NCBI GenBank assembly: GCA_020725145.1
Contig: DYFO01000020.1
Coordinates: 1-38,317 of the forward strand
DNA length: 38,317 nucleotides
Source: Symbiobacterium thermophilum
GTDB lineage: Bacteria > Bacillota > Sulfobacillia > UBA995
Direction: 5' to 3'
The notes beneath the pieces are model-generated. The model made no database searches. It worked only from the letters and a program-made list of their open reading frames with translations, and had not been told where the DNA came from. Below are positions 11,227 to 36,979 of the stretch, in pieces. Positions within the stretch are counted from its first letter, which is position 1; each line of letters begins with the position of its first letter. The translations under genes were made by a program, and so were the position numbers.

Positions 11227-12430
11227 CCACCTGGAGTGTTCCGCATGCGGCCGCATCTGGTCACCCACCGTGCCTCGCAACCTGTGCGATTGCGGCCGGC
11301 CGCTGCTGGCCCGTTACGATCTCGACACCGGCCGCAGGCGGTTTGCCGACGGTTTGAACGCGCAGGGGCGCGGGCTTTGGCGCTGGGCCCAACTTCTGCC
11401 CGTGGGCGAGCCCGGCCATCGCCTTGAGCTGGGGGAGGGTGGTACGCCCTCGCTTCCGCTACCACGCCTGGCCGGACGGCTTGGGCTCGGGGCTGTGTAC
11501 CTGAAGGACGAGGCGGGCAATCCTACCGGCACTTTCAAGGCACGAGGGGCGGCGGTTGCCGTCTCAAAGGCCCGCGAACTCGGCATCACCCGGGTGGCCA
11601 TTCCCTCAGCGGGCAACGCAGGGGCGGCGTGGGCGGCCTACTGCGCCAGGGCGGGGATCCGCCTCCTGGTGGTGCTGCCATGCGATACCCCCGCGGCCGC
11701 CCAGGAGGAGTGCCGCCTGTACGGCGCCGAGGTGGAGGTGGTCGAAGGCTCCCTCGCCGATGCCGGGAGGGTGGCAGCCGAGCGGGCCAGGGCCGAAGGA
11801 TGGTTCGAGGCGGCAACCCTCAAGGAGCCTTACCGGGTCGAGGGAAAGAAGACGGTGGGCCTGGAGCTCTGGGAGGAGTTCGGGGCGGGAATAGACGCCA
11901 TCGTCCATCCCTGTGGCGGTGGGGTGGGGCTGATCGGCATTCACAAAGCCTATCAAGAACTTGCCGCCCTGGGGATGGTGGCCGGGGGTGAGGTCCCGCG
12001 GCTCGTTGCCGTGCAGGCGGCCGGATGTGCGCCCGTCGTGCGGGCGATGCGGGAGGGGGCCGAACGCGCGGACCTTTGGCCCGAGCCCCGCACCCTCGCC
12101 GCCGGGCTGCGGGTTCCTCGGGTGCTGGGAGACACGCTGGTGCTCAAGGCCCTGCGGCAGACGGGCGGGACGGCGGTGGCGGTGGAGGATCGCGAGATGC
12201 TGGAGGCCACCGTCGAAGTGGCCAGGCACGAGGGTATCTGGGTGTGCCCGGAGGGGGCGGCGGCGGTAGCCGCCCTCACCCGGTTACGGGAAACCGGTTT
12301 TCTCGGGCCGGGTGACCGGGTGGTGGTGGTCAACACCGGCACCGGTCTCAAGCATCCCGAGCTGGCCGCCGCCGCGCGCGCAAGCGGGCCGTGGCAAAAG
12401 GACACTCGTGGACTCAGCCCAGCGGTTTGA
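11201..12430 (+). CDS. thrC: Threonine synthase
   Basis: N-terminal Zn-ribbon (LECSACGRIW...CDCGRPL), EGGTPSLPLPRL, KDEAGNPTGTFKARGAAVAVSKARELG (PLP lysine), HPCGGGVGLIG. Confidence 0.93.
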   Translation: MNASMSLLSHLECSACGRIWSPTVPRNLCDCGRPLLARYDLDTGRRRFADGLNAQGRGLWRWAQLLPVGEPGHRLELGEGGTPSLPLPRLAGRLGLGAVYLKDEAGNPTGTFKARGAAVAVSKARELGITRVAIPSAGNAGAAWAAYCARAGIRLLVVLPCDTPAAAQEECRLYGAEVEVVEGSLADAGRVAAERARAEGWFEAATLKEPYRVEGKKTVGLELWEEFGAGIDAIVHPCGGGVGLIGIHKAYQELAALGMVAGGEVPRLVAVQAAGCAPVVRAMREGAERADLWPEPRTLAAGLRVPRVLGDTLVLKALRQTGGTAVAVEDREMLEATVEVARHEGIWVCPEGAAAVAALTRLRETGFLGPGDRVVVVNTGTGLKHPELAAAARASGPWQKDTRGLSPAV

Positions 12431-12920
12431 CCCGCCGCAGCGCGTGCGCCAGCGGCAGGGCGATGGCCGCGCTGCCCACCGCCTGCACGATGCTGCCGGG
12501 GACCTCCGCCAGCGCCGCCCGGTAGTCCCAGAGCACGCTGCCGGCCACGAAGTAGCCGAACATCATCCACACTCCTCCGGCCAGGATAGCAAGCAGCGTG
12601 AGGGGAGTCAGGCGACCGGCCTGCTGAAACGCCCGGTGGCCGATAACCCCGACCAGCAGCCCTTCCAATCCCTTGATGGCCAGGGTCCAAGGGGCCCACA
12701 TGGTGGCCCCCAGCAAGATGTCGGCGAGGGCGGAGCCCACTCCCCCCGCAAGCAGCGCCAGGCGGGGGCCCAGCAGCAGGGCGACGAGGAAGATCACGCT
12801 ATCGCCCACGTTGACGTAGCCTTGGGTCGCCGGTACGGGCACGGTGATCGCCATGGTGGCCAGGGTTACCAGGGCAATGCAGAGGGCGGAGACGGTTAGC
12901 AGACGAAGCCGGCTGGACAC
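12414..12920 (-). CDS. ribU: ECF transporter S component, riboflavin-specific (RibU-like)
   Basis: Hydrophobic ECF-S protein; GTG start at 12920 with AAAGGAGG RBS; directly downstream of an FMN riboswitch and terminator. Confidence 0.8.
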   Translation of the reverse strand: MSSRLRLLTVSALCIALVTLATMAITVPVPATQGYVNVGDSVIFLVALLLGPRLALLAGGVGSALADILLGATMWAPWTLAIKGLEGLLVGVIGHRAFQQAGRLTPLTLLAILAGGVWMMFGYFVAGSVLWDYRAALAEVPGSIVQAVGSAAIALPLAHALRRVKPLG

Positions 12921-12978
12921 GGCACGGACCTCCTTTTGCCCTCGGAACAGGGATGGGAGAATCCGGCCGTGCCGATCC

Positions 12979-13004
12979 AAAACCCCCGGACAGGCGTCCG
13001 GGGG
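12979..13004 (-). terminator. Intrinsic terminator of the FMN riboswitch expression platform
   Basis: On the minus strand CCCCCGGAC-gcct-GTCCGGGGG-TTTT, 9-bp perfect stem plus U-tract just after the aptamer. Confidence 0.88.
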
Positions 13005-13021
13005 CAGGATGGCACAAAGCC

Positions 13022-13168
13022 ATGTCTCCTCCCATTCGGACTTTACCGTCGGCTCCGGATTCGCACCGGCTCAACCGCTGGGGCTGACGGGCTCGTCCCC
13101 TCTAAGGGGCATCACCGCCGGTCGGGAATTGGAGACGGGGCCGTCTCCTCACCCTGCCCCGAAGACAT
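13022..13168 (-). ncRNA. FMN riboswitch (RFN element)
   Basis: Minus strand ATGTCTTCGGGGCAGGGTGA...AATTCCCGACCGGCGGTGAT...GAGCCGGTGCGAATCCGGAGCCGACGGTAAAGTCCGAATGGGAGGAGACAT; P1 AUGUCUUC/GGAGACAU pairs. Confidence 0.96.
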
Positions 13169-13264
13169 CTCTGCCACCTAATATAAGCCCGGCCGCCCCG
13201 GACGTCAATGGGGCTGGCGGGCCGCGAAATCTTACGGCAGGATCCGGCGCAAGGGAGGATGCCA

Positions 13265-13966: not shown

Positions 13967-14246
13967 AACGCGTGCCAATCTGTCAATCTTATCGGCAGGT
14001 GTCAAGTGCCCGGGGTATCCCCGCTTGTGCTGTCAGATAATGTAGGTGAGCGCCGACGCTTCTTGCCCTGCCAGGAGAGGTCATGGGTGCTTACCTGCCC
14101 GTGTCGAGGGTGGACATGGCGGCCGGATCCGGCTCGCTGCTGCTCCAGTCCCCTGTCCGTGCCTGGCACGTGCAAGGTCAAGACCAAAGACCCGGGCCGG
14201 TATGCAGGAGCGGACAAGGGATACGACGAATCAGCAGCGACGACAA

Positions 14247-14345
14247 ACCGGGGGAGCTCGGAAGAGCCCGGGCTGAGAACGGAGCCGCGACGAAGGTTCC
14301 GGACCCCTAGGGACCTGACCTGGGTAATGCCAGCGTAGGGAGCAT
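14247..14345 (+). ncRNA. TPP riboswitch (THI element)
   Basis: CCGGGGGAGCTC...GAGCCCGGGCTGAGAACGG...GGACCTGACCTGGGTAATGCCAGCGTAGGGAG matches the TPP aptamer core (GGGGAGC, GGGCTGAGA, ACCTGATCTGGATAATGCCAGCGTAGGGA). Confidence 0.96.
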
Positions 14346-14362
14346 AGCGTCGCGATCGAGCG

Positions 14363-24296: not shown

Positions 24297-24325
24297 TTGA
24301 CCGGTGCCACGTCCCCGGGTACAAT
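24297..24325 (+). promoter_or_regulatory. Sigma-A-type promoter of the tad operon
   Basis: TTGACC - 17 nt - TACAAT, ending 32 nt before GTG at 24358. Confidence 0.75.
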
Positions 24326-24357
24326 GGGACCCACTGGAAGGAACTGGGGGGACTGCC

Positions 24358-25083
24358 GTGCGCAACCGTCGACTCCTCATCCTGACCATCCTGATAGCCG
24401 GCGCTACCGGGTTTGCCCTATACCAGTATCTTTCAGGTCTCGATCGACGGGTGAGCGTGGTGGTCGCCGCGGTGCCGCTGAAAGAACTAACGGTGCTTGA
24501 ACCATCCATGCTCAGGGTCCTGAGCATTCCGGCCGGAGGGGTGCATCCACGGGCCACGAGTGCGCCCGAGACACTCGTCGGCAAGGTGGTGCTGGTTCCG
24601 ATGGAAGTGGGCCAGCAGATCCTGGTGACTCAGGTCCGCGAACGCGGCTCCCTCGGTGGGGTTAGCCGCTACGCGGCCGCCCTTGACCCCGGTGAACGGG
24701 CCATGATGATCCCCACCACGCTGGCACGTGGGGTGGGGGGCGGGTTGACTGCAGGGGATCGCGTGGACGTCATCTTCGTTGCCGACGAGTTGAAGCTGGG
24801 CTGTTCCTTTTCGCGCGTTCTACTGCAGGCGGTGAGGGTCCTGGACGTCAGAGGCGACCGCGGGCAGCCGATAAGCTCGGAACGCGACGGGATGCCGGCA
24901 GGCGTCGTGGTAGCCGTAAGCCTCGACGATGCCGAACGTCTGGCATTCGCCCTCGAGAACGGTCAGCTATACCTGGTAAGCAGTGGCGGACGCCGTGAAC
25001 CGGAGTTCAAGACCCCCGGCGCTTGCTTTGAGACGCTCTTTCGGGACGACTGGTGGGTGCCTGAGGGCGTGAACTCCCACTAG
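24358..25083 (+). CDS. cpaB: Flp pilus assembly protein CpaB (SAF domain)
   Basis: N-terminal TM, then VVVAAVPLKELTVLEPSMLRVLSIPAGGVHPRATSAPETLVGKVVLVPMEVGQQILVTQV; first gene of the tad cluster. Confidence 0.88.
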   Translation: MRNRRLLILTILIAGATGFALYQYLSGLDRRVSVVVAAVPLKELTVLEPSMLRVLSIPAGGVHPRATSAPETLVGKVVLVPMEVGQQILVTQVRERGSLGGVSRYAAALDPGERAMMIPTTLARGVGGGLTAGDRVDVIFVADELKLGCSFSRVLLQAVRVLDVRGDRGQPISSERDGMPAGVVVAVSLDDAERLAFALENGQLYLVSSGGRREPEFKTPGACFETLFRDDWWVPEGVNSH

Positions 25084-25105
25084 CGAAGTAAGGAGGGAGT
25101 CGGTT

Positions 25106-26389
25106 TTGCCCAGACGCGCGATCGGCCGGCGGTCAGACCCGTCCCGGCCTTTGCGGGTGTTCGTAGCGGCGTCGGACCCGAGCGTGGTGGAAGCGGTACT
25201 GGCAAACCCGGCGTACGAGCTGGCAGGCCACGTGCAACATGTGGAACATTGCCTGCCCATTGTGGGCGAACTGGACGTCGATGCGCTGGTGGTGGCAGAC
25301 GAGGGCGATGATACCGTGGCGCTCGCACGCCACCTGAGGCTGATCTACCCTCGCCTGGCGCTGACCCTGCTCGTGGCCGCCGACCTGTCCCCGTCTGTCG
25401 CCGCCGGCCTGGAGAGGGCTGGGGTGAACGTGGTAAGGGAGTTGTCTTCACACTTCGGGGAAGTGGCGGCGAGCGCACTCCCCGGGCCGGCACCACCCCG
25501 CACGCAGGCCGACGGGGCCGCCTCGCCTCGTAGGTGGCTCTCGGGTCAACGTGGGCAGGAACGGCCCACACCCTCCATCCTGACGCAGCAGGTGGTGGCG
25601 GTGTGCAGTCCAAAGGGCGGTGTGGGGAAGACGCTACTTGCCACCAACCTTGCGGTGGCGGTGGCCACCCGCACACCCGCGCGCACGGTTCTCGTGGATC
25701 TCGACCTGGCTTCCAGTGATGTGGGAGTTCACCTGGACTTGTTGGAAGGGCCCACGATCGTAGACCTCCTCCCGTATCTACCGGAGGTGGGCTCTGCCGA
25801 CCTGCGGCGCTTTGTCATGACCCATCGAGCCTCGGGCCTTGACGTCCTGCTGGGCCCGGCGCGCCCGGAGCTGGCGGGCCTTGTGAAGACCGAACACCTC
25901 CGTAGGATACTTGACTGGCTCAGGCGCGAGTACCACTTCGTTTTCCTGGATACGCCCCCGGACACCAGCAGCGACCTCGTCTGCGAATGTCTTGAGGCGG
26001 CGTCCAGGATCCTTCTCGTCACCACCACCGACGCGGCGTCACTCCGCCAGGCTCGGGTGATGGTCGACGTCCTCGATCGTCTGGGCACCGGCAAGGAGCG
26101 CGTGCTGCTGGTGGTCAACCAGCTTCACGAGGGTAGCCCGGTAACCCTCCGGGAAGTGCAGAGTTTCCTGGGGTTGAGTACGGTGTTCGGGTTGGTGACC
26201 GACCGTCGCCTGGCCGAAGGGGCGGTGTTTGAGGGCAAGCCGCTGGTGTTGCAGCCATCCGACCACCCGCTGGTCGTTTCTCTCCTGGAGGTAGCCGCAG
26301 CGTTGTGTCCGGGAATGCAACTGCCGGCCGACGGACGGCTGACACGGCCAAGAGGAGTCCTTGGCTGGCTGAAAAGGGTACTGCCATGA
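25106..26389 (+). CDS. cpaE: CpaE/TadZ-like protein (receiver-like + MinD-like ATPase)
   Basis: AVCSPKGGVGKTLLATNLAVAVATRTPARTVLVDLDLASSDVGVHLDL; position before tadA. Confidence 0.92.
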   Translation: MPRRAIGRRSDPSRPLRVFVAASDPSVVEAVLANPAYELAGHVQHVEHCLPIVGELDVDALVVADEGDDTVALARHLRLIYPRLALTLLVAADLSPSVAAGLERAGVNVVRELSSHFGEVAASALPGPAPPRTQADGAASPRRWLSGQRGQERPTPSILTQQVVAVCSPKGGVGKTLLATNLAVAVATRTPARTVLVDLDLASSDVGVHLDLLEGPTIVDLLPYLPEVGSADLRRFVMTHRASGLDVLLGPARPELAGLVKTEHLRRILDWLRREYHFVFLDTPPDTSSDLVCECLEAASRILLVTTTDAASLRQARVMVDVLDRLGTGKERVLLVVNQLHEGSPVTLREVQSFLGLSTVFGLVTDRRLAEGAVFEGKPLVLQPSDHPLVVSLLEVAAALCPGMQLPADGRLTRPRGVLGWLKRVLP

Positions 26390-27726
26390 CCGATGTTCCA
26401 GAAGAACGGCTGGCGCGTTTCGATCCGGCGGCCAAGACGGCCCAGACCGGTGACCTGGCCGTAACGCAGCTCGTTCCTGAAGGCCTGTTGGAGAGAGTCC
26501 GTGCCCTCATGGTGGAGCGCCACCGCGATCTCCTGGAAGCTTCACAGGACGGCCGCCGGCGCCGTGAACAGCTGCGTACCGCAGTGGGTCGCCTCCTGCT
26601 GGAAACCGGCTTGGGAAGCCACAGGCTTACCCGCGACGGCCTGGTCGACCGCCTTGTGGACTACCTGGTTGGCTACGGCCCTTTGGAACCGCTCCTGGCC
26701 GATCCCACGGTAACCGAGATCATGGTGAACGGTCCCGATATGGTCTATGTGGAGCGAGGCGGCCGCATCGAGCCGGTAGGGGTCAGGTTCAGGGACGAGC
26801 AACACCTCGAAGACGTCATCGCCCGCATAGTTGCCCCACTGGGGCGGCGCATCGACTACTCACTGCCCTTCGTCGACGCTCGGTTGCCGGATGGGTCGCG
26901 GGTGCATGCCATCATCCGCCCGCTGGCCGTGAGAGGTCCGGCGCTGACCATAAGGAAGTTCGCCCGACGCCCGCTCACCGCCGGCGACCTGGTCCGAAAC
27001 GGTACGCTCAGCGAGGAGATGGCAGACTTCCTGTCCTTAGCCGTGCGAGGTCGTTGCAACCTGTTAATATCGGGCGGGGCAGGATCGGGGAAGACCACAA
27101 CGCTCAACGTGCTGTCGGCCTTCATCCCCGACGGAATGGAGCGCATCGTCACCATTGAAGACGCGGCCGAGCTTCAGCTCGACCAGCAGCACGTGGTGGC
27201 CCTCGAAAGCAGGCCTCCCAACCTCGAGGGAAAGGGGGAGATCACCGTACGCATGCTGCTGCGGAACGCCCTGCGTATGCGTCCCGACCGGATAATCATC
27301 GGCGAATGCCGTGGTGGTGAGGCATTTGACCTGTTGCAGGCGATGAACACCGGTCACGAGGGGTGCATGTCTACGATTCACGCTAACAGCTGCGCTGATG
27401 CGCTCGTGCGCCTGGAGAACATGGTGCTGATGGCCGGGGAGAGTCTGCCGCATGAAGCGGTACGTGCGCAGGTCCGTGCAGGGGTTGACATAGTCGTTCA
27501 CCAGGCGCGCTTCCGAGACGGCACCCGCCGCATCACGGAAATCGCCCTTGCCCGGGCCGACGGGAAAGAGGGGACGGTGACCATCTTTCGGTGGAACCCC
27601 GAGAGGGCCGGCTTTGAGCGTGTCGGCAACTCGCTGCCGCCACGCTTGCTGGCACGCCTGCGTCAGAACGGACTTAGCGCACCTGCCTGGCTGGCGACCG
27701 GCGGGGAACAGGAGGTGCCCCGGTGA
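26386..27726 (+). CDS. tadA: CpaF/TadA secretion ATPase
   Basis: [103 protein letters not shown] overlap with cpaE. Confidence 0.97.
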
Positions 27727-28589
27727 CGGGTTGGGGAGCCGAACACCTCGATCGCCTGCTCATATGCATCGGGGCCGCCTCGGCGATGGCCTCCGCCGTG
27801 ATGTTGCTAACCCGTCAGGGCCTGGGCTTCGGCATCACTGCTCGACGGCTGGCAAATATGGTTCCTCGGGTTACCCACGCCGGGAAGCCGTCAGGGCTGC
27901 TCTCAAAGGTGATTCCCACGATGGCGACCGCGGCCGGAGGCCTGGTCTTGGGGATGGCGGCCGGGGGTGTGGCCGGAGCGGCTGTCGGGACCTGTCTGGC
28001 CTCATGGGCGAGGGGGCACTACCTCAGGCATAAGCAAGCTGCCCGCATCCGTGCTTTTCAAGAAGCGTTCCCCAACGCCTTGCTGGCGCTGGGTGCCTGC
28101 TTGCGCTCCGGGCAGAGCCTGCTTCAGGCCATCGAAGCCCTCACGGCCGAAGGAGACGGACCCGTCGTCCGGGCACTGCAGGGCGTGCTCGACGAGTACC
28201 GGACAGGCGTGCCACTGCTCACAGCCCTGGGCCGATTGGAGGGAGATTTCCCCGGGGAGGAAGTCCGCTATTTTTTGCAGGCGCTTGAGGCCCATCGCCT
28301 GAGCGGTGGCAACCTGGCCGAGGTGCTCGCCGGCGCCGCGACCGCCCTGCACGAACGTAGGATGTTGGTGGGGGAATTCGAGGCCAAGACCCAGGAAGCC
28401 CGTGTGTCAGCTCGTGTGCTGCTCGCCCTTCCCGTGGTCCTTGGGCTTTACTTTGCGTGGGCCAACCCGGAGATGCTTCGCCCGCTGTGGGAGACCACAA
28501 CCGGCCGGCTAGGGGCCGCCTACGGCTTGGCGTCCTGGTTGATCGGACGCGAGCTGATGGCCCGGATGGTCCGAACGCTCGAGCTCTGA
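27723..28589 (+). CDS. tadB: Flp pilus assembly protein TadB (type II secretion F family)
   Basis: FQEAFPNALLALGACLRSGQSLLQAIEALTAEG...VRYFLQALEAHRLSGGNLAEVLAGAATALHERR; GTGA overlap with tadA. Confidence 0.92.
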   Translation: MTGWGAEHLDRLLICIGAASAMASAVMLLTRQGLGFGITARRLANMVPRVTHAGKPSGLLSKVIPTMATAAGGLVLGMAAGGVAGAAVGTCLASWARGHYLRHKQAARIRAFQEAFPNALLALGACLRSGQSLLQAIEALTAEGDGPVVRALQGVLDEYRTGVPLLTALGRLEGDFPGEEVRYFLQALEAHRLSGGNLAEVLAGAATALHERRMLVGEFEAKTQEARVSARVLLALPVVLGLYFAWANPEMLRPLWETTTGRLGAAYGLASWLIGRELMARMVRTLEL

Positions 28590-28602
28590 AGGAGGGGATC
28601 AG

Positions 28603-29415
28603 GTGAACATACCTGCCGCATTGGTCGCAGCGGCGGTTGCGGTACAGGTCGGCGCCCTGAGCCGGTGGCTCGTTCGCCACGTCGGGCACCGGCTGGGCAG
28701 GCTCGCGGGCAACCTGCCGTCGCGACGCCCGCCATGGTCGGGCGACGGGCTCAGACAAAGGCTTGCCCGTATCCCCATCGGCAGAGCGTTGAGGGCTCTG
28801 CCGGACGAGGCGGCAGGGTGGTGTCTGGGTGGGGGAGCGCTCGGAGCCGTGCTGGGGATGATCGGCTGGACATGCCTCGATCTGCCGTTCGTGTTCGTGC
28901 CGGCACTGGCCGTCCTGGGCGGACTGGCCCCCGTGGAGTGGTTTCGGGCCAGAGCACGTGTGCGACAGCGCTCCATCCTGTCCGACCTGGCAGGCGTACT
29001 GGACCTGCTGGCGGTGTGCGCGGACGGCGGCCTGAGTCTGGGCAAAGCCGTGGAGCTCGTGGCCGCCCGGGCCCCCGGGTCGCTTGGGGACGAACTTCGC
29101 CGCACCGTGCAGGAGATGGCCGCGGGACGTCCGGCGGGCCCGGCGCTGCAGGCCATGGCCCGGCGGATAGACCTCCCGGCCGTGAGCCTGCTGGTGGGAG
29201 CGTTGCTGCGGGCCGAGGAGCTGGGCACGCCGCTGACGGCCGTACTGCGTCAGCAGGCGTCCGCGGCGCGGGCGCAAAAGAGGCATGCCTTCGAGCGCAG
29301 TCTGGCCACGCTGCCGCTCAAGCTCACCCTGTGTACGCTGTGTTTCATCTTCCCGACCCTGTTCGTGCTGGTTGTTTTACCCAATCTGCTCTGGTTCATC
29401 CGCGCCAGGTGGTGA
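28603..29415 (+). CDS. tadC: Flp pilus assembly protein TadC (type II secretion F family)
   Basis: LAGVLDLLAVCADGGLSLGKAVELVAARAPGSLGDELRRTVQEMAAGRP...FPTLFVLVVLPNLL. Confidence 0.92.
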   Translation: MNIPAALVAAAVAVQVGALSRWLVRHVGHRLGRLAGNLPSRRPPWSGDGLRQRLARIPIGRALRALPDEAAGWCLGGGALGAVLGMIGWTCLDLPFVFVPALAVLGGLAPVEWFRARARVRQRSILSDLAGVLDLLAVCADGGLSLGKAVELVAARAPGSLGDELRRTVQEMAAGRPAGPALQAMARRIDLPAVSLLVGALLRAEELGTPLTAVLRQQASAARAQKRHAFERSLATLPLKLTLCTLCFIFPTLFVLVVLPNLLWFIRARW

Positions 29416-29437
29416 AAGTGGGGAAAGGAGGACCATC

Positions 29438-29623
29438 ATGAATTGGCGTGAGAAGTTCACGCGCTGGTGGTACTGCGAGGGAGGTGCCACTACCACGGAA
29501 TACGCTTTGCTTCTTGCCTTGGTAGTGGTTGTGCTCATCGGCACGCTGACCCAGCTGGGGGCGACGCTCAAGGCGAAGCTCGAGGAGATCATCTCCCGGC
29601 TCGGGACGGTGGGTCCGCCGTGA
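29438..29623 (+). CDS. flp: Flp family type IVb pilin
   Basis: 61-aa MNWREKFTRWWYCEGGATTTEYALLLALVVVVLIGTLTQLGATLKAKLEEIISRL with prepilin-type TTEYALL motif. Confidence 0.93.
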   Translation: MNWREKFTRWWYCEGGATTTEYALLLALVVVVLIGTLTQLGATLKAKLEEIISRLGTVGPP

Positions 29624-30069
29624 GCCCGCCCCTTACCCCTGAAGCTCATAACCCGGGCTCAAAGCGCCGGGGGACGGCAGAATCGGGGGTAGTGCTGGTG
29701 GAGTTCGTTCTCGTCGCGGGGCTCTTGCTGCTGCTCTGCTTCGGGATGATCGAGCTCGGGCTGCTGGTCAACGCCAAGCTCGTGCTGGCGGCGGCGGCCC
29801 GCGAGGGAGCGCGTCGGGCGGCGGTGGAGGGCGGAGCCACCGCCGGCGTGTACCACAAGATAACCGAGCAGTTGGAGCTGGGGAACATCCACGCCGACGA
29901 AGTCGATATCCGCATAAGCCCGGCAAGGGCGGCGTACGGCTCGGCCATCACCGTAACTCTCAGCTACGACTATCCGGTATTCATGCCCCTGCTCCGGAGC
30001 GTATTTGGCGCCACCGTGCACCTGCAATCGGAGGTAACGACCCGCAGTGAGCGGGTCAGAGGGCCGTGA
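29620..30069 (+). CDS. tadE: TadE-like pseudopilin
   Basis: GVVLVEFVLVAGLLLLLCFGMIELGLLVNAKLVLAAAAREGARRAAVEGG; GTGA overlap with flp. Confidence 0.9.
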   Translation: MSPPLTPEAHNPGSKRRGTAESGVVLVEFVLVAGLLLLLCFGMIELGLLVNAKLVLAAAAREGARRAAVEGGATAGVYHKITEQLELGNIHADEVDIRISPARAAYGSAITVTLSYDYPVFMPLLRSVFGATVHLQSEVTTRSERVRGP

Positions 30070-30548
30070 AGCGACGGCACGAGGAAGGAGCGGTGCTGGT
30101 TACGGCGGTACTGATGTTGCCGGTGATGCTGCTCGCGCTGGCGCTGGTGGCCGATGCCGGGTGGCTGCTACTGGCCAGGCAGCTTGCCTCGAACGCCGCG
30201 GACATGGCGGCGCTGGCTGCCGTACAGGAGCTTGACGAGGAACTTCTGCGACAAGGGCAGCTGGCTCTGGATGGTTCGCGTGCTCGTGCGATGGCCATCG
30301 AGTACGCCCGGCATAACCTGCAGGCTGCCCTCCCCGGCCTTGACCTGCAGTCGGAGGTGGCCGTCAGCGTCGAGGTCCACCAGCCCTCTCCCTCTGTCAG
30401 CCCGCGGTGTCGGGTGACCGGACGGGAGCTTGAGCACCCCACGGTGTGCGTTAGCCTGGAGCTGACGCTACCGCTGCGACTGCTGCCGGTCCCCGGGGGA
30501 CGGGTGCGGGTGAAAGCCCATGCCGACGCCAGCGTGGTGCTACCCTGA
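30066..30548 (+). CDS. TadG-like pilus assembly protein
   Basis: EEGAVLVTAVLMLPVMLLALALVADAGWLLLARQLASNAADMAALAAVQEL, typical of the TadG N-terminal region. Confidence 0.85.
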   Translation: MKRRHEEGAVLVTAVLMLPVMLLALALVADAGWLLLARQLASNAADMAALAAVQELDEELLRQGQLALDGSRARAMAIEYARHNLQAALPGLDLQSEVAVSVEVHQPSPSVSPRCRVTGRELEHPTVCVSLELTLPLRLLPVPGGRVRVKAHADASVVLP

Positions 30549-33346: not shown

Positions 33347-34998
33347 TCGGGTTTGAAACTCAGCTCTAGAGGAAGGCCCATGGTGCAGGGGTTTTGGGGA
33401 ACAAGGGGGTGACGTACCACTACACCCTTCCGGGGTATCCAGTCAGAGGGGCACTTCGGTAACGTGTAGTGGCGGCCGCAGCCCCACGGCGCGGAACGCC
33501 ACGTCAGCGCAGCCGCCAGTTCCGTGCGGGCCAGGTAGCGCTTCCCGTCCAGGTGAAGGTCAACGGCCTGCAACTGGCAGAGGTCAAGCAGCAAGTCGTC
33601 ATAGCGGACTTCCTTGCCCAACGCCTTGAGCTTCCTGCGCAGGGCCGTCTCCAGCACGAGCGCCAGAAAGCAGACCACCACATGACCCCTGATACGCCTC
33701 TCCGTCCGGCCTGAGGTCGAGTCCCGACTTCAGTTCCCGGAACGCGTGCTCAACCTGCCAGAGGCTCTTGTAGGCCTGCGCCACCTCATCGGCGGCCAGA
33801 GAGGAGTTGGTGCGAAGCACCCATTTGCCGTCGTACCGGGACTCCTCCTCCAGGACCCGCCCGTCTACCGAGACGCCTGCCCCGTCGATGCGAAGGTACC
33901 GACGGTAGGCACGGTTGCCGATGAGCTGCTTCACTTCACCGGCAGCCAGCTTCTCTCTCAGCCTGGCCACCGCCGCTTCCCGCACCAGTCGGTCACGCTC
34001 GCGCTCCTCCGGGTTGAGGCACACGAGGTAGCGCACACCGGCGTGGACCACCTCCTTCACCTTGAGGTTCAAAGACACCTCGCGGTACCTCCCGGCCCGG
34101 GACAGCACCTCCCGTGCTGCCTTGAGCTTGCGCATCCGCACCCCGACGATGTACTCCAGGTTCGACCCTTCGAGCTCCCGGAGCAGTTCGCCGGACACCA
34201 TCCCCCGGTCGGCAACCAGGATCACCCGTCTTGGGTGGAACTCTTGCTTGACCTTGCCTATCACGTGCCGGAAAGTGTCCACCTCGGCCGTGTTGCCGGG
34301 GAACACCTCGTGGGCTATCGGGAAGCCGTCGCCAGAGACCAGCACTCCGACCATGATCTGTACCCGGTCAGGCTGCTTGTCCTTCGAAAAGCCGTACTCC
34401 GCCAGCCCCTCCGCCGCCCGACCTTCAAAGTACGTGGTCGTCGCATCCCACAGAACAAGATCCAGCTCCAGGTTGAAAAGGTCCCTCACCTGGTCATACA
34501 GACCTTGCTCAAGTTCGGTCTTGTGCTCGGAAAGGAAGTCGAGGGCACGGTAGAAGTGATTGAGCTCCAGCCGCTCCCACTCGGGCCGGTATATTGTCCT
34601 CACCCAATCGCTTACCCGCAGCTTGGACATCGGGTCCAGGAGACGGTTGAGCACCATCGCGAAGGCCGCTTCCTCGAAATCAGTCCGGGCCGCAGCACCC
34701 TCAACCAGCCGTCCCAGCATCGCGGCCAGCCCCAGCTGTTCCCATGGCCGGCGGAAGATCAGCACCGGCCCCCAGGTCTTGGCCTGCCTGGCCCGGATCT
34801 GCCGAGCCCGCTCCAGCACCCACTGCTTCCGGGAGAACCGGGTCAGCTGCTCGATGAGCCCGTCGAGGGGACCCGCCTGCAGCTTCTCCAGCCGCCCAGG
34901 GTGGCCACTACCTTCTGGCGCATCTTGCCGCTCACCTGTTCACTGGTGACCAGCTGCAGGTAGGTACGAGTGCTCCCGTCGCGGTTGCGGAAGGTGGG
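33346..34998 (-). mobile_element. Degraded IS1634/IS4-superfamily insertion sequence
   Basis: Transposase DNA and protein motifs across three frames (33599..34819 core, 3' part in the 33681 frame, 5' part in another frame); boundaries approximate, no matching terminal inverted repeats found by eye. Confidence 0.8.
33599..34819 (-). pseudogene. IS1634-type transposase core, frameshifted at both ends
   Basis: LDLVLWDATTTYFEG, GFSKDKQPDRVQIMVGVLVSGDGFPIAHEVFPGNTAEVDTF, VILVADRGMVSGELL, YKSLWQVEHAFRELKSGLDLRP. Confidence 0.88.
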
Positions 34999-35820
34999 CT
35001 AGCTCGGCCAATCGATTATGTACAGGGGGCCGGGCTCCAGGGTGTCACCCTCCTCCGACGACACCGCAAGCCACGGTCGAACGAGCAGGACGCGCCTCCT
35101 CAAATGACCATCGCTGGCCTCCGACTTGAGCTGGACCCGCAGGTAAGCCCCCCGCCCATCAAAGCGCACGGGATCGAATTCCAGGATCACGTCCTCAGGC
35201 AACCCGGGGCAGACCAGGGAAACGTCGACGGCGCGTGATCCTAACCAGACCTCGCCGTCGTAATGGCCGTGACGGTACGGTACTGCATAGAAGAGCAGGA
35301 CCAGTGTGCTCAGATCCACGAGCTGTTGCCTGTCTTGGCCGGGAGACCTGGCGTCAAACAGCACCCTTCCGATCGGCAGGGCCCGCGTTGAACCTCCGCG
35401 GGCTATCGTGAGCGCCGTCAGGTGATGTTCGCCGGGGGAAAGAGGGGTAACTTCCATCCGGATTACCCATCGCCGGCAGGGCTTGTTCAGGTAAAGCGGA
35501 GCAATGCTAAAGGAGGTGACTACCAGCTCAGGGTTATCGGTCGCGACGGACATGATCGTCCCCGACGCATTGAGCCACGGCCACCGGCCATAGTCATTGA
35601 AGAGGATTGAGAGACTCGTGCTCCTGCCTACATAGCAGGCAACATAGCCTTCATGCGGGGGCTCGACGAAGTAGACCCCTCTGAACGCAAACGGTACTAG
35701 GAGTGCCAGCGTGATCAGCGCGAGAGTCCCTGCGGCAACTGCCTTCAGTCTATGGCGCGGGGATGGTTCCTTCTCGTGCCCCTCAGCTTCCTGCACGCTC
35801 ACGCTCACCTCCCTGCTCAA
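34999..35820 (-). CDS. Uncharacterised membrane-anchored protein with one N-terminal TM helix
   Basis: ORF with TM segment LKAVAAGTLALITLALLVPFAFRGVYFV and extracytoplasmic-type remainder; follows the 35827 gene by 6 nt. Confidence 0.7.
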   Translation of the reverse strand: MSREVSVSVQEAEGHEKEPSPRHRLKAVAAGTLALITLALLVPFAFRGVYFVEPPHEGYVACYVGRSTSLSILFNDYGRWPWLNASGTIMSVATDNPELVVTSFSIAPLYLNKPCRRWVIRMEVTPLSPGEHHLTALTIARGGSTRALPIGRVLFDARSPGQDRQQLVDLSTLVLLFYAVPYRHGHYDGEVWLGSRAVDVSLVCPGLPEDVILEFDPVRFDGRGAYLRVQLKSEASDGHLRRRVLLVRPWLAVSSEEGDTLEPGPLYIIDWPS

Positions 35821-35826
35821 CGCGTT

Positions 35827-36723
35827 CTATTGGGCTGCGGCATTGCACTCTGCGCAATAGCACGTCCGGCGCTGCAGTTCGTAGGTCCGGTCTTCGGGGA
35901 AGACAAACCTGAAACCAGAGGCAGTATACTCTCCCTGGAACCAACGGGTTATCTCTCCTTTTACATCCTCGTCTGTGCAGTACCACTGCCAGTAAGTCGC
36001 TGACGAATGGAAATGCCTGTCCCAGTGCCCAATGGCCGCCTCCTCGCCGCGTGGGCAGAAGGAACACGTGGGATCGTTGGGACCCTTGGGAGTGTAGGGG
36101 CCGTATGTTGCGGTCGCTGTCCACGTACAACGATACTCAAGCTTGAGCCAGGCCAGCAGCGTTTGCAGAGGAACGGTCGCTCCTCCGCTGATCGTTGTGC
36201 CCCAGGTAACGGACGTTGACACGGAAACCGGTAGCGGATGCCGCGAGTACGCAGTGTCCCAGTAGTAATGCTGGTCGTGATAGTCAGAGGCATGGATCAG
36301 CTGGTGCTCATACCAGACCGCTCTGATGGACGCGCCAGCCGAATCGAGGGTTACCTTGGAGTTCTGCAGATGCCTCGCAAGGATGAGGCACTGTGCCAAG
36401 TCCGCCTCGCTCCAATTCCCGTCGAGTTCACCGCTCGTCAGCGCTTGTTCATCGATGAAAAGCCTACCGTCCTCAGTTAGCGTGTAACAGTGCGGGTTGG
36501 AGTTCAGCAGAGTCAACAGCGCCCGGCCGACCTTCTCCTCACACGTCGACATGCACCTGAAGACGGATTCGCGTACCGAGAGATAGCCCCCGAGAATGGC
36601 CAAGTCGTTGCGCATGAGAGCTCCGACCCTGGGTATGCAGCAAGAAGCCGGTTCCGCCAGGACAGGCGTCACAAGAAGCAGGTAGAGCAAGACCACCGAC
36701 ATCAGACCCGCTAAGCGACGCAT
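35827..36723 (-). CDS. Uncharacterised secreted cysteine-rich protein
   Basis: Signal peptide MRRLAGLMSVVLLYLLLVTPVLA from ATG 36723 (RBS GGTGGAAGG); many Cys residues incl. C-terminal TCYCAEC. Confidence 0.75.
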   Translation of the reverse strand: MRRLAGLMSVVLLYLLLVTPVLAEPASCCIPRVGALMRNDLAILGGYLSVRESVFRCMSTCEEKVGRALLTLLNSNPHCYTLTEDGRLFIDEQALTSGELDGNWSEADLAQCLILARHLQNSKVTLDSAGASIRAVWYEHQLIHASDYHDQHYYWDTAYSRHPLPVSVSTSVTWGTTISGGATVPLQTLLAWLKLEYRCTWTATATYGPYTPKGPNDPTCSFCPRGEEAAIGHWDRHFHSSATYWQWYCTDEDVKGEITRWFQGEYTASGFRFVFPEDRTYELQRRTCYCAECNAAAQ

Positions 36724-36771
36724 ACCTTCCACCCCCAGGACTGCCATTTGCTACCACGCCTGTCTCTAGCT

Positions 36772-36801
36772 AGCATACTGCGGCTTACCTCCGTTTGTCA
36801 A
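36772..36801 (-). promoter_or_regulatory. Sigma-A-type promoter for the two-gene secreted/membrane module
   Basis: Minus strand TTGACA - 18 nt - TATGCT about 50 nt upstream of ATG 36723. Confidence 0.7.
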
Positions 36802-36814
36802 GGCGAAAAGTGTG

Positions 36815-36979
36815 GGCAAGGCCTTTGAGCAAAGCACTGCTTCCGACCCCGCCGACCGGCCCGTGATGCTGCGCATAGAGACCATGGCCGGGCACGGAGC
36901 GGGCAAGCCGGTTCGCAAGGTGGTCGCCGAGCAAGCGGACATCCTGACGTTTCTGGCGTGGCAGCTGGAATTGGGTTAG
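36815..36979 (+). pseudogene. C-terminal stub of a prolyl oligopeptidase (S9A)
   Basis: GKAFEQSTASDPADRPVMLRIETMAGHGAGKPVRKVVAEQADILTFLAWQLELG* matches the catalytic-His C-terminal end (RVETxAGHGxGKP...EQADIxxFLAW). Confidence 0.85.

What the first reader, a model, noticed from the sequence alone, without database searches (positions are those of the whole stretch)
34999..36801. Two-gene low-GC module: secreted Cys-rich protein plus single-TM membrane protein, with its own promoter, wedged between two decayed genes
The segment has visibly lower GC than its surroundings and carries two same-strand genes 6 nt apart. The first encodes a signal peptide and a ~275-aa mature protein with roughly 15 cysteines (SCC, RCMSTC, TCSFC, TCYCAEC) and an S/T/V-rich central stretch. 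The second is a single-TM protein with a large exposed domain. A TTGACA-N18-TATGCT promoter drives them. I recognise no family for either. One flank is a dead IS, the other a prolyl-oligopeptidase stub, suggesting acquired DNA. An exported toxin/antimicrobial with a membrane partner (immunity or anchoring), or a surface adhesin, are hypotheses only.
Basis: partly seen in the sequence, partly recalled or inferred. Interest (0 to 1): 0.62.

Follow-up and report, generated by a model that had tools for sequence, protein, structure and literature searches.

The report
Orphan secreted-protein and membrane-partner gene pair
Two neighbouring genes, one for an exported protein and one for a membrane-anchored partner, form a real and conserved but very rare pair that matches no known protein family; it looks old and inherited rather than recently acquired, and what it does is unknown.

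Summary
The two genes are real. Gene 1 (35827-36723/36747, minus) encodes a signal peptide and a 275-aa secreted protein. Gene 2 (34999-35820, minus) encodes one TM helix and an exposed domain predicted to be partly an Ig-like beta-sandwich. Neither matches Pfam, NCBIfam or PADLOC, and neither has a convincing PHROGs or PDB match. The TTGACA-N18-TATGCT promoter and low GC are confirmed. The flanks are a twice-frameshifted, truncated IS1634 transposase and a prolyl-oligopeptidase remnant.

Of 154 genomes of the class, five have gene 1. In all five, gene 2 lies directly downstream. Three pairs are intact; in two, gene 1 is broken and gene 2 whole. Gene 2 also occurs alone (two loci). No convincing relative was found elsewhere. 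The two gene trees mirror each other and the taxonomy, and low GC recurs in relatives, so recent acquisition is not supported. The cysteines are not conserved (13, 9 and 2 in full-length proteins); the family signature is DxHFHSxATYxQxxCTDEDxxG. Both genes are under purifying selection.

Best reading: a lineage-specific surface pair in which gene 1's product works with gene 2's anchored ectodomain. Toxin-immunity remains possible, with only asymmetric gene loss in its favour. Tests for chagasin-type inhibitor and beta-hairpin pore gave no support.

The parts
36772..36801 (-). Promoter TTGACA-N18-TATGCT for the pair
   Evidence: Only match in the window, 0.00 expected in shuffles; TTGACA-N17-TACGAT and TTGACA-N17-TAGCCT lie upstream of gene 1 in L004 and L008
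35827..36747 (-). Gene 1: secreted orphan protein, ORF 306 aa; likely start ATG at 36723 (298 aa)
   Evidence: homologues in 4 other genomes; dN/dS about 0.21 against L004
36655..36723 (-). Signal peptide of gene 1 (MRRLAGLMSVVLLYLLLVTPVLA, cut before EPASCC), no lipobox
   Evidence: sequence inspection; hydrophobic peak
35893..36252 (-). Conserved C-terminal domain of gene 1 (residues about 166-285)
   Evidence: 44-73% identical across five genomes
35956..36021 (-). Signature DxHFHSxATYxQxxCTDEDxxG of gene 1 (residues 243-264)
   Evidence: invariant columns in A1/A6
34999..35820 (-). Gene 2: single-TM protein, ORF 273 aa, TTG start (or GTG at 35802)
   Evidence: homologue directly downstream of gene 1 in 5/5 genomes, plus 2 solo copies
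35683..35739 (-). TM helix of gene 2, N-in/C-out by charge
   Evidence: AF2 helix 21-45
35347..35649 (-). Predicted beta-sandwich (Ig-like) domain of gene 2, residues 58-158
   Evidence: AF2 pLDDT mostly 54-91 here, seven strands; Foldseek hits mainly Ig-like folds, weak
35071..35079 (-). RPW, invariant in all seven gene 2 homologues
33520..34998 (-). Flank, not part of the module: dead IS1634 transposase, 5'-truncated flush with the gene 2 stop, two frameshifts (outer edge approximate)
36815..36979 (+). Flank, not part of the module: prolyl-oligopeptidase C-terminal remnant (left edge approximate)
   Evidence: PF00326 E=0.0022

Best explanation
A lineage-specific two-gene operon for a cell-surface pair. 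SHOWN: adjacency of gene 1 and gene 2 in all five genomes that have gene 1, tight spacing, parallel divergence, purifying selection. PREDICTED from sequence: gene 1 is exported by Sec and released; gene 2 is anchored by one N-terminal helix with its domain outside, at least partly an Ig-like beta-sandwich. INFERRED: the gene 1 product binds or is held by the gene 2 ectodomain at the outer face of the membrane, and the complex recognises or binds something outside through the conserved C-terminal domain of gene 1. Gene 1 depends on gene 2, but gene 2 can act without gene 1. The pair was inherited within the class and lost many times, not recently acquired here.
For: 5/5 gene 1 homologues have gene 2 directly downstream on the same strand, with a TGATG stop/start overlap in G001 and 6 nt spacing in the window. 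Five loci have five different neighbourhoods, so adjacency is not passive synteny. Trees of gene 1 (C-terminal part) and gene 2 share the topology ((G000,G151),G150),(G039,G001), in line with the kinship labels. dN/dS (window-L004, NG86) is 0.21 for gene 1 and 0.42 for gene 2. Gene 2 solo copies: G151:C5, G037:C8. Topology. Ig-like prediction. A TTGACA promoter lies upstream of gene 1 in 3 of the 4 loci whose upstream region was read.
Against: No direct evidence of interaction. Both structure models are poor overall (mean pLDDT about 50), so even the Ig-like assignment is tentative. Only five loci are known, all MAG-like assemblies. The different neighbourhoods could also mean transfer within the class; the tree test is weak with five tips.
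Confidence: 0.42

Rival explanations
1. Exported antibacterial toxin (gene 1) with a membrane-anchored immunity protein (gene 2).
For: Gene 1 is never found without gene 2. Where gene 1 is damaged (G150 frameshifts, G001 loss of the N-terminal half) gene 2 stays open, and solo gene 2 copies exist. This is the loss pattern expected for orphan immunity genes.
Against: The C-terminal domain of gene 1 is its most conserved part (44-58% between families against 23-27% for gene 2), not diversified. No match to toxin, immunity or defence models in Pfam, NCBIfam, PADLOC or PHROGs. No amphipathic beta-hairpin signal above shuffles. No plasmid or phage carrier found. Two damaged copies are too few to test the asymmetry.
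Confidence: 0.18
2. Two separately acting envelope proteins that share a promoter; for example, gene 2 a general sensor or envelope factor and gene 1 a secreted binding protein or enzyme, without physical contact.
For: Gene 2 occurs alone, evolves faster than gene 1 and stays intact without it.
Against: Gene 1 is never found without gene 2 directly downstream although all surroundings differ.
Confidence: 0.25
3. Recently acquired foreign DNA: cargo brought in by an insertion sequence or other mobile element.
For: Low GC, dead IS on one side and gene remnant on the other, an unrelated transposase next to the pair in G151, patchy distribution: 5 of 154 genomes.
Against: The IS is a single broken copy lying outside the pair, and the transposases in G000 and G151 are unrelated and on opposite sides of the pair. 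Pair divergence tracks CpaF (68/61% against 71%) and taxonomy. Low GC recurs in the relatives' copies. No plasmid, phage or viral relatives.
Confidence: 0.1

Closest known systems
Inhibitor_I42 / chagasin family (PF09394)
   Same: Ig-like beta-sandwich prediction for gene 2; weak Foldseek matches to chagasin (2h7w) and amebosin (6cjz); an RPW tripeptide.
   Different: Profile-profile probability 0.4%, aligning only the RPW; no NPTTG or GxGG motif; RPW lies about 90 residues beyond the predicted sandwich. Not a member.
Secreted bacteriocin plus membrane immunity operons (general kind)
   Same: Exported first gene, membrane second gene, tight operon, second gene survives loss of the first.
   Different: No sequence match to any modelled bacteriocin or immunity family; long protein with its most conserved domain at the C-terminus; no activity data.
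Bitopic Ig-like surface receptors/anchors of bacteria (general kind)
   Same: Single N-terminal TM helix, predicted beta-sandwich ectodomain.
   Different: No Pfam Ig-like family detected; second half of the ectodomain not modelled with confidence.

Membership tests
Inhibitor_I42 (chagasin), for gene 2 | Sequence profile match to PF09394 | tested here: not met
   No Pfam hit at E<=1; hhalign of A3 against I42 domains of the same class: probability 0.4%
Inhibitor_I42 (chagasin), for gene 2 | NPTTG(Y/F), GxGG and RPW loop motifs in one about 110-aa domain | tested here: not met
   Only RPW is present, outside the predicted sandwich
Toxin-immunity pair | Second gene always present with the first | tested here: met
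   5/5 loci
Toxin-immunity pair | Toxicity of gene 1, neutralised by gene 2 | not testable with these tools
   needs expression
Toxin-immunity pair | Match to a known toxin, immunity or defence family | tested here: not met
   Pfam, NCBIfam, PADLOC, PHROGs
Beta-pore-forming toxin, for gene 1 | Amphipathic S/T-rich transmembrane beta-hairpin | tested here: not met
   Top beta-moment reached by 194, 51 and 294 of 500 shuffles in the three full-length proteins; a crude test
Beta-pore-forming toxin, for gene 1 | Fold match to a known pore-forming toxin | tested here: inconclusive
   No Foldseek match at E<=0.001, but the model is poor
Secreted cysteine-rich (disulfide-stabilised) protein family, for gene 1 | Conserved cysteine pattern | tested here: not met
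   13, 9 and 2 Cys in the full-length homologues, one invariant Cys

The most novel reading that the evidence does not exclude
A new kind of two-protein antagonism or surface-recognition system, with a secreted protein of unknown fold (HxH...CTDED signature) and a dedicated Ig-like membrane-anchored partner, confined to one poorly studied bacterial class.
Probability: 0.15. Interest if true: 0.6.

Novelty: new variant of a known kind. Interest (0 to 1): 0.36.

Why it matters
It adds two unnamed protein families with a fixed partnership, which is a stronger starting point than single orphan genes: the prediction that the two bind, and that gene 2 is needed for gene 1, is directly testable. It also corrects an easy misreading: low GC beside a dead IS looked like recent acquisition, but the relatives say otherwise.

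Tried and rejected
Chagasin-type inhibitor for gene 2, suggested by Foldseek and RPW: rejected by profile comparison. Beta-hairpin pore former for gene 1: no signal above shuffles. Shared ancestry of gene 1 and gene 2: none. Weak hits of the C-terminal profile in 38 other genomes of the phylum (E 0.02-0.5): a long-ORF check of six of them showed unrelated proteins or no plausible ORF, so all were treated as chance. Gene 1 model against the PDB by fold: nothing at E<=0.001, model too poor to interpret. Plasmids, phages, viral contigs: no relative of gene 1; the viral scan with the gene 2 alignment could not run. Extra class search centred on G155 covered one genome only and shows nothing. Naming the host: the only named relatives are 'bacterium isolate Ess09-15' and 'Clostridiales bacterium isolate 30'; the candidate mineral-water paper (PMC11708057) does not mention the isolate.

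Full report
OBSERVATION. Gene 1 is 35827-36747 on the minus strand; an in-frame ATG at 36723 is the likelier start, since it removes eight residues in front of an ordinary signal peptide and the L004 homologue has an in-frame ATG at the matching place. Gene 2 is 34999-35820, 6 nt downstream with the TTG start. GC is 0.584 and 0.613 against 0.674 +/- 0.020 for 26 other ORFs of the window, and GC3 is lower too. The promoter TTGACA-N18-TATGCT is unique in the window and not expected by chance. The downstream IS is dead: an IS1634 transposase with a frameshift near each end, cut at its 5' end flush with the gene 2 stop, and without another copy in the genome. The upstream flank is a prolyl-oligopeptidase C-terminal remnant (E=0.0022, below the curated cut-off but well placed at the end of the profile). 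Gene 1 has 13 cysteines.

FAMILY. Neither protein matches Pfam, NCBIfam or PADLOC, and PHROGs and PDB sequences give nothing convincing, singly or as alignments. Relatives exist in the same class. A pattern-based scan of 84,980 species genomes gave two. Profile searches of 154 genomes of the class gave gene 1 in five: G000, G151, G039, G150, G001. A sample of 399 genomes of the phylum gave only G000 and G151, for gene 1 and for gene 2. A more sensitive search with the conserved C-terminal domain in 349 genomes gave only weak hits; the six inspected were unrelated or had no plausible ORF. The pattern-based scan can miss relatives: it missed G039 (FCTDEDIK in place of YCTDEDVK).

PAIRING. In all five genomes gene 2 lies directly downstream of gene 1 on the same strand. 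In three the pair is intact (G000, G151, G039). In G150 gene 1 carries several frameshifts and stops; in G001 it lacks its N-terminal half and signal peptide; gene 2 is whole in both. Gene 2 also occurs alone in G151:C5 and, more distantly, in G037:C8. The neighbours differ in every locus: metallo-beta-lactamase-fold gene in the window; transposase and ABC transporter in G151; RND transporter and TetR regulator in G039; glycyl-tRNA synthetase in G001; HAD hydrolase in G150. Adjacency is therefore unlikely to be left-over synteny. The two trees have the same topology, in line with the kinship labels. Window-L004 dN/dS is 0.21 and 0.42 by NG86, 0.11 and 0.24 by YN00, so both genes are under purifying selection; dS is high and the values are rough.

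NOT RECENTLY ACQUIRED. The pair is also below its surroundings in GC in the relatives: L004 0.60/0.65 against 0.67-0.68, L007 0.52/0.59 against 0.656, L009 0.53/0.60 against 0.632, L008 gene 2 0.586 against 0.681. Identity between G000 and G151 (68%, 61%) is close to that of CpaF (71%). The IS lies outside the pair, and the G151 transposase is unrelated to it and on the other side. Older transfer within the class is not excluded.

ANATOMY. Gene 1: signal peptide without lipobox, an N-terminal part of about 100 residues predicted mixed helical (pLDDT about 66-85) and a C-terminal domain with no confident model. The conserved core is SGG...LLxWxKxE...DxHFHSxATYxQxxCTDEDxxG...G..TAxG. The cysteines are mostly specific to the G000/G151 family; one is invariant. 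Gene 2: cytoplasmic N-terminus, one TM helix, a seven-strand sandwich at residues 58-158 with moderate confidence, and an unresolved second half with an invariant RPW. Foldseek returns mainly Ig-like folds with low TM-scores, which supports a class of fold, not a family.

MECHANISM. Shown: fixed adjacency, common inheritance, selection. Predicted: export of gene 1, anchoring and outward exposure of gene 2. Inferred: the two products meet outside the membrane and act as a surface pair. The toxin-immunity reading fits the pattern of loss but has no other support, and conservation of the C-terminal domain of gene 1 speaks against a diversifying toxin domain. I put 0.42 on the surface-pair model, 0.25 on separate envelope functions, 0.18 on toxin-immunity, 0.10 on recent mobile cargo.

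NOVELTY. Both families are unnamed in every library searched, but the general kind, a secreted protein with an anchored partner, is common. Limits: few and partly fragmentary relatives, poor structure models from three-sequence alignments, and no metagenome search.

Noticed in passing
window 13020-13170 (-) and 14240-14358 (+): FMN riboswitch upstream of a small membrane protein that looks like a riboflavin ECF transporter subunit (12414-12980, -), and TPP riboswitch upstream of thiD/thiM/thiE-like ORFs (gene names by eye).
   Followed up: partly
window 24304-30548 (+): Apparent Tad/Flp pilus locus (CpaB, CpaE, CpaF, TadB/C, Flp, TadE/G-like ORFs), named by eye; CpaF was used as the core-gene yardstick.
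   Followed up: partly
window 33520-34998 (-): Sole copy in the genome of an IS1634-type transposase, with two frameshifts and a 5' truncation exactly at the gene 2 stop.
   Followed up: yes
L008:200-960: Gene 1 of G150 is scattered over several frames while its TTGACA promoter and gene 2 are kept; decay or, less likely, assembly error.
   Followed up: partly
L004:6909-7016: Gene 2 of G151 has no ATG/GTG/TTG in its upstream frame at the expected place; a CTG eight nt behind AAGGAGGAG is a possible start.
   Followed up: partly
L021:4585-5391 (-): Solo gene 2 paralogue in G151 with normal GC (0.688), unlike the paired copies.
   Followed up: partly
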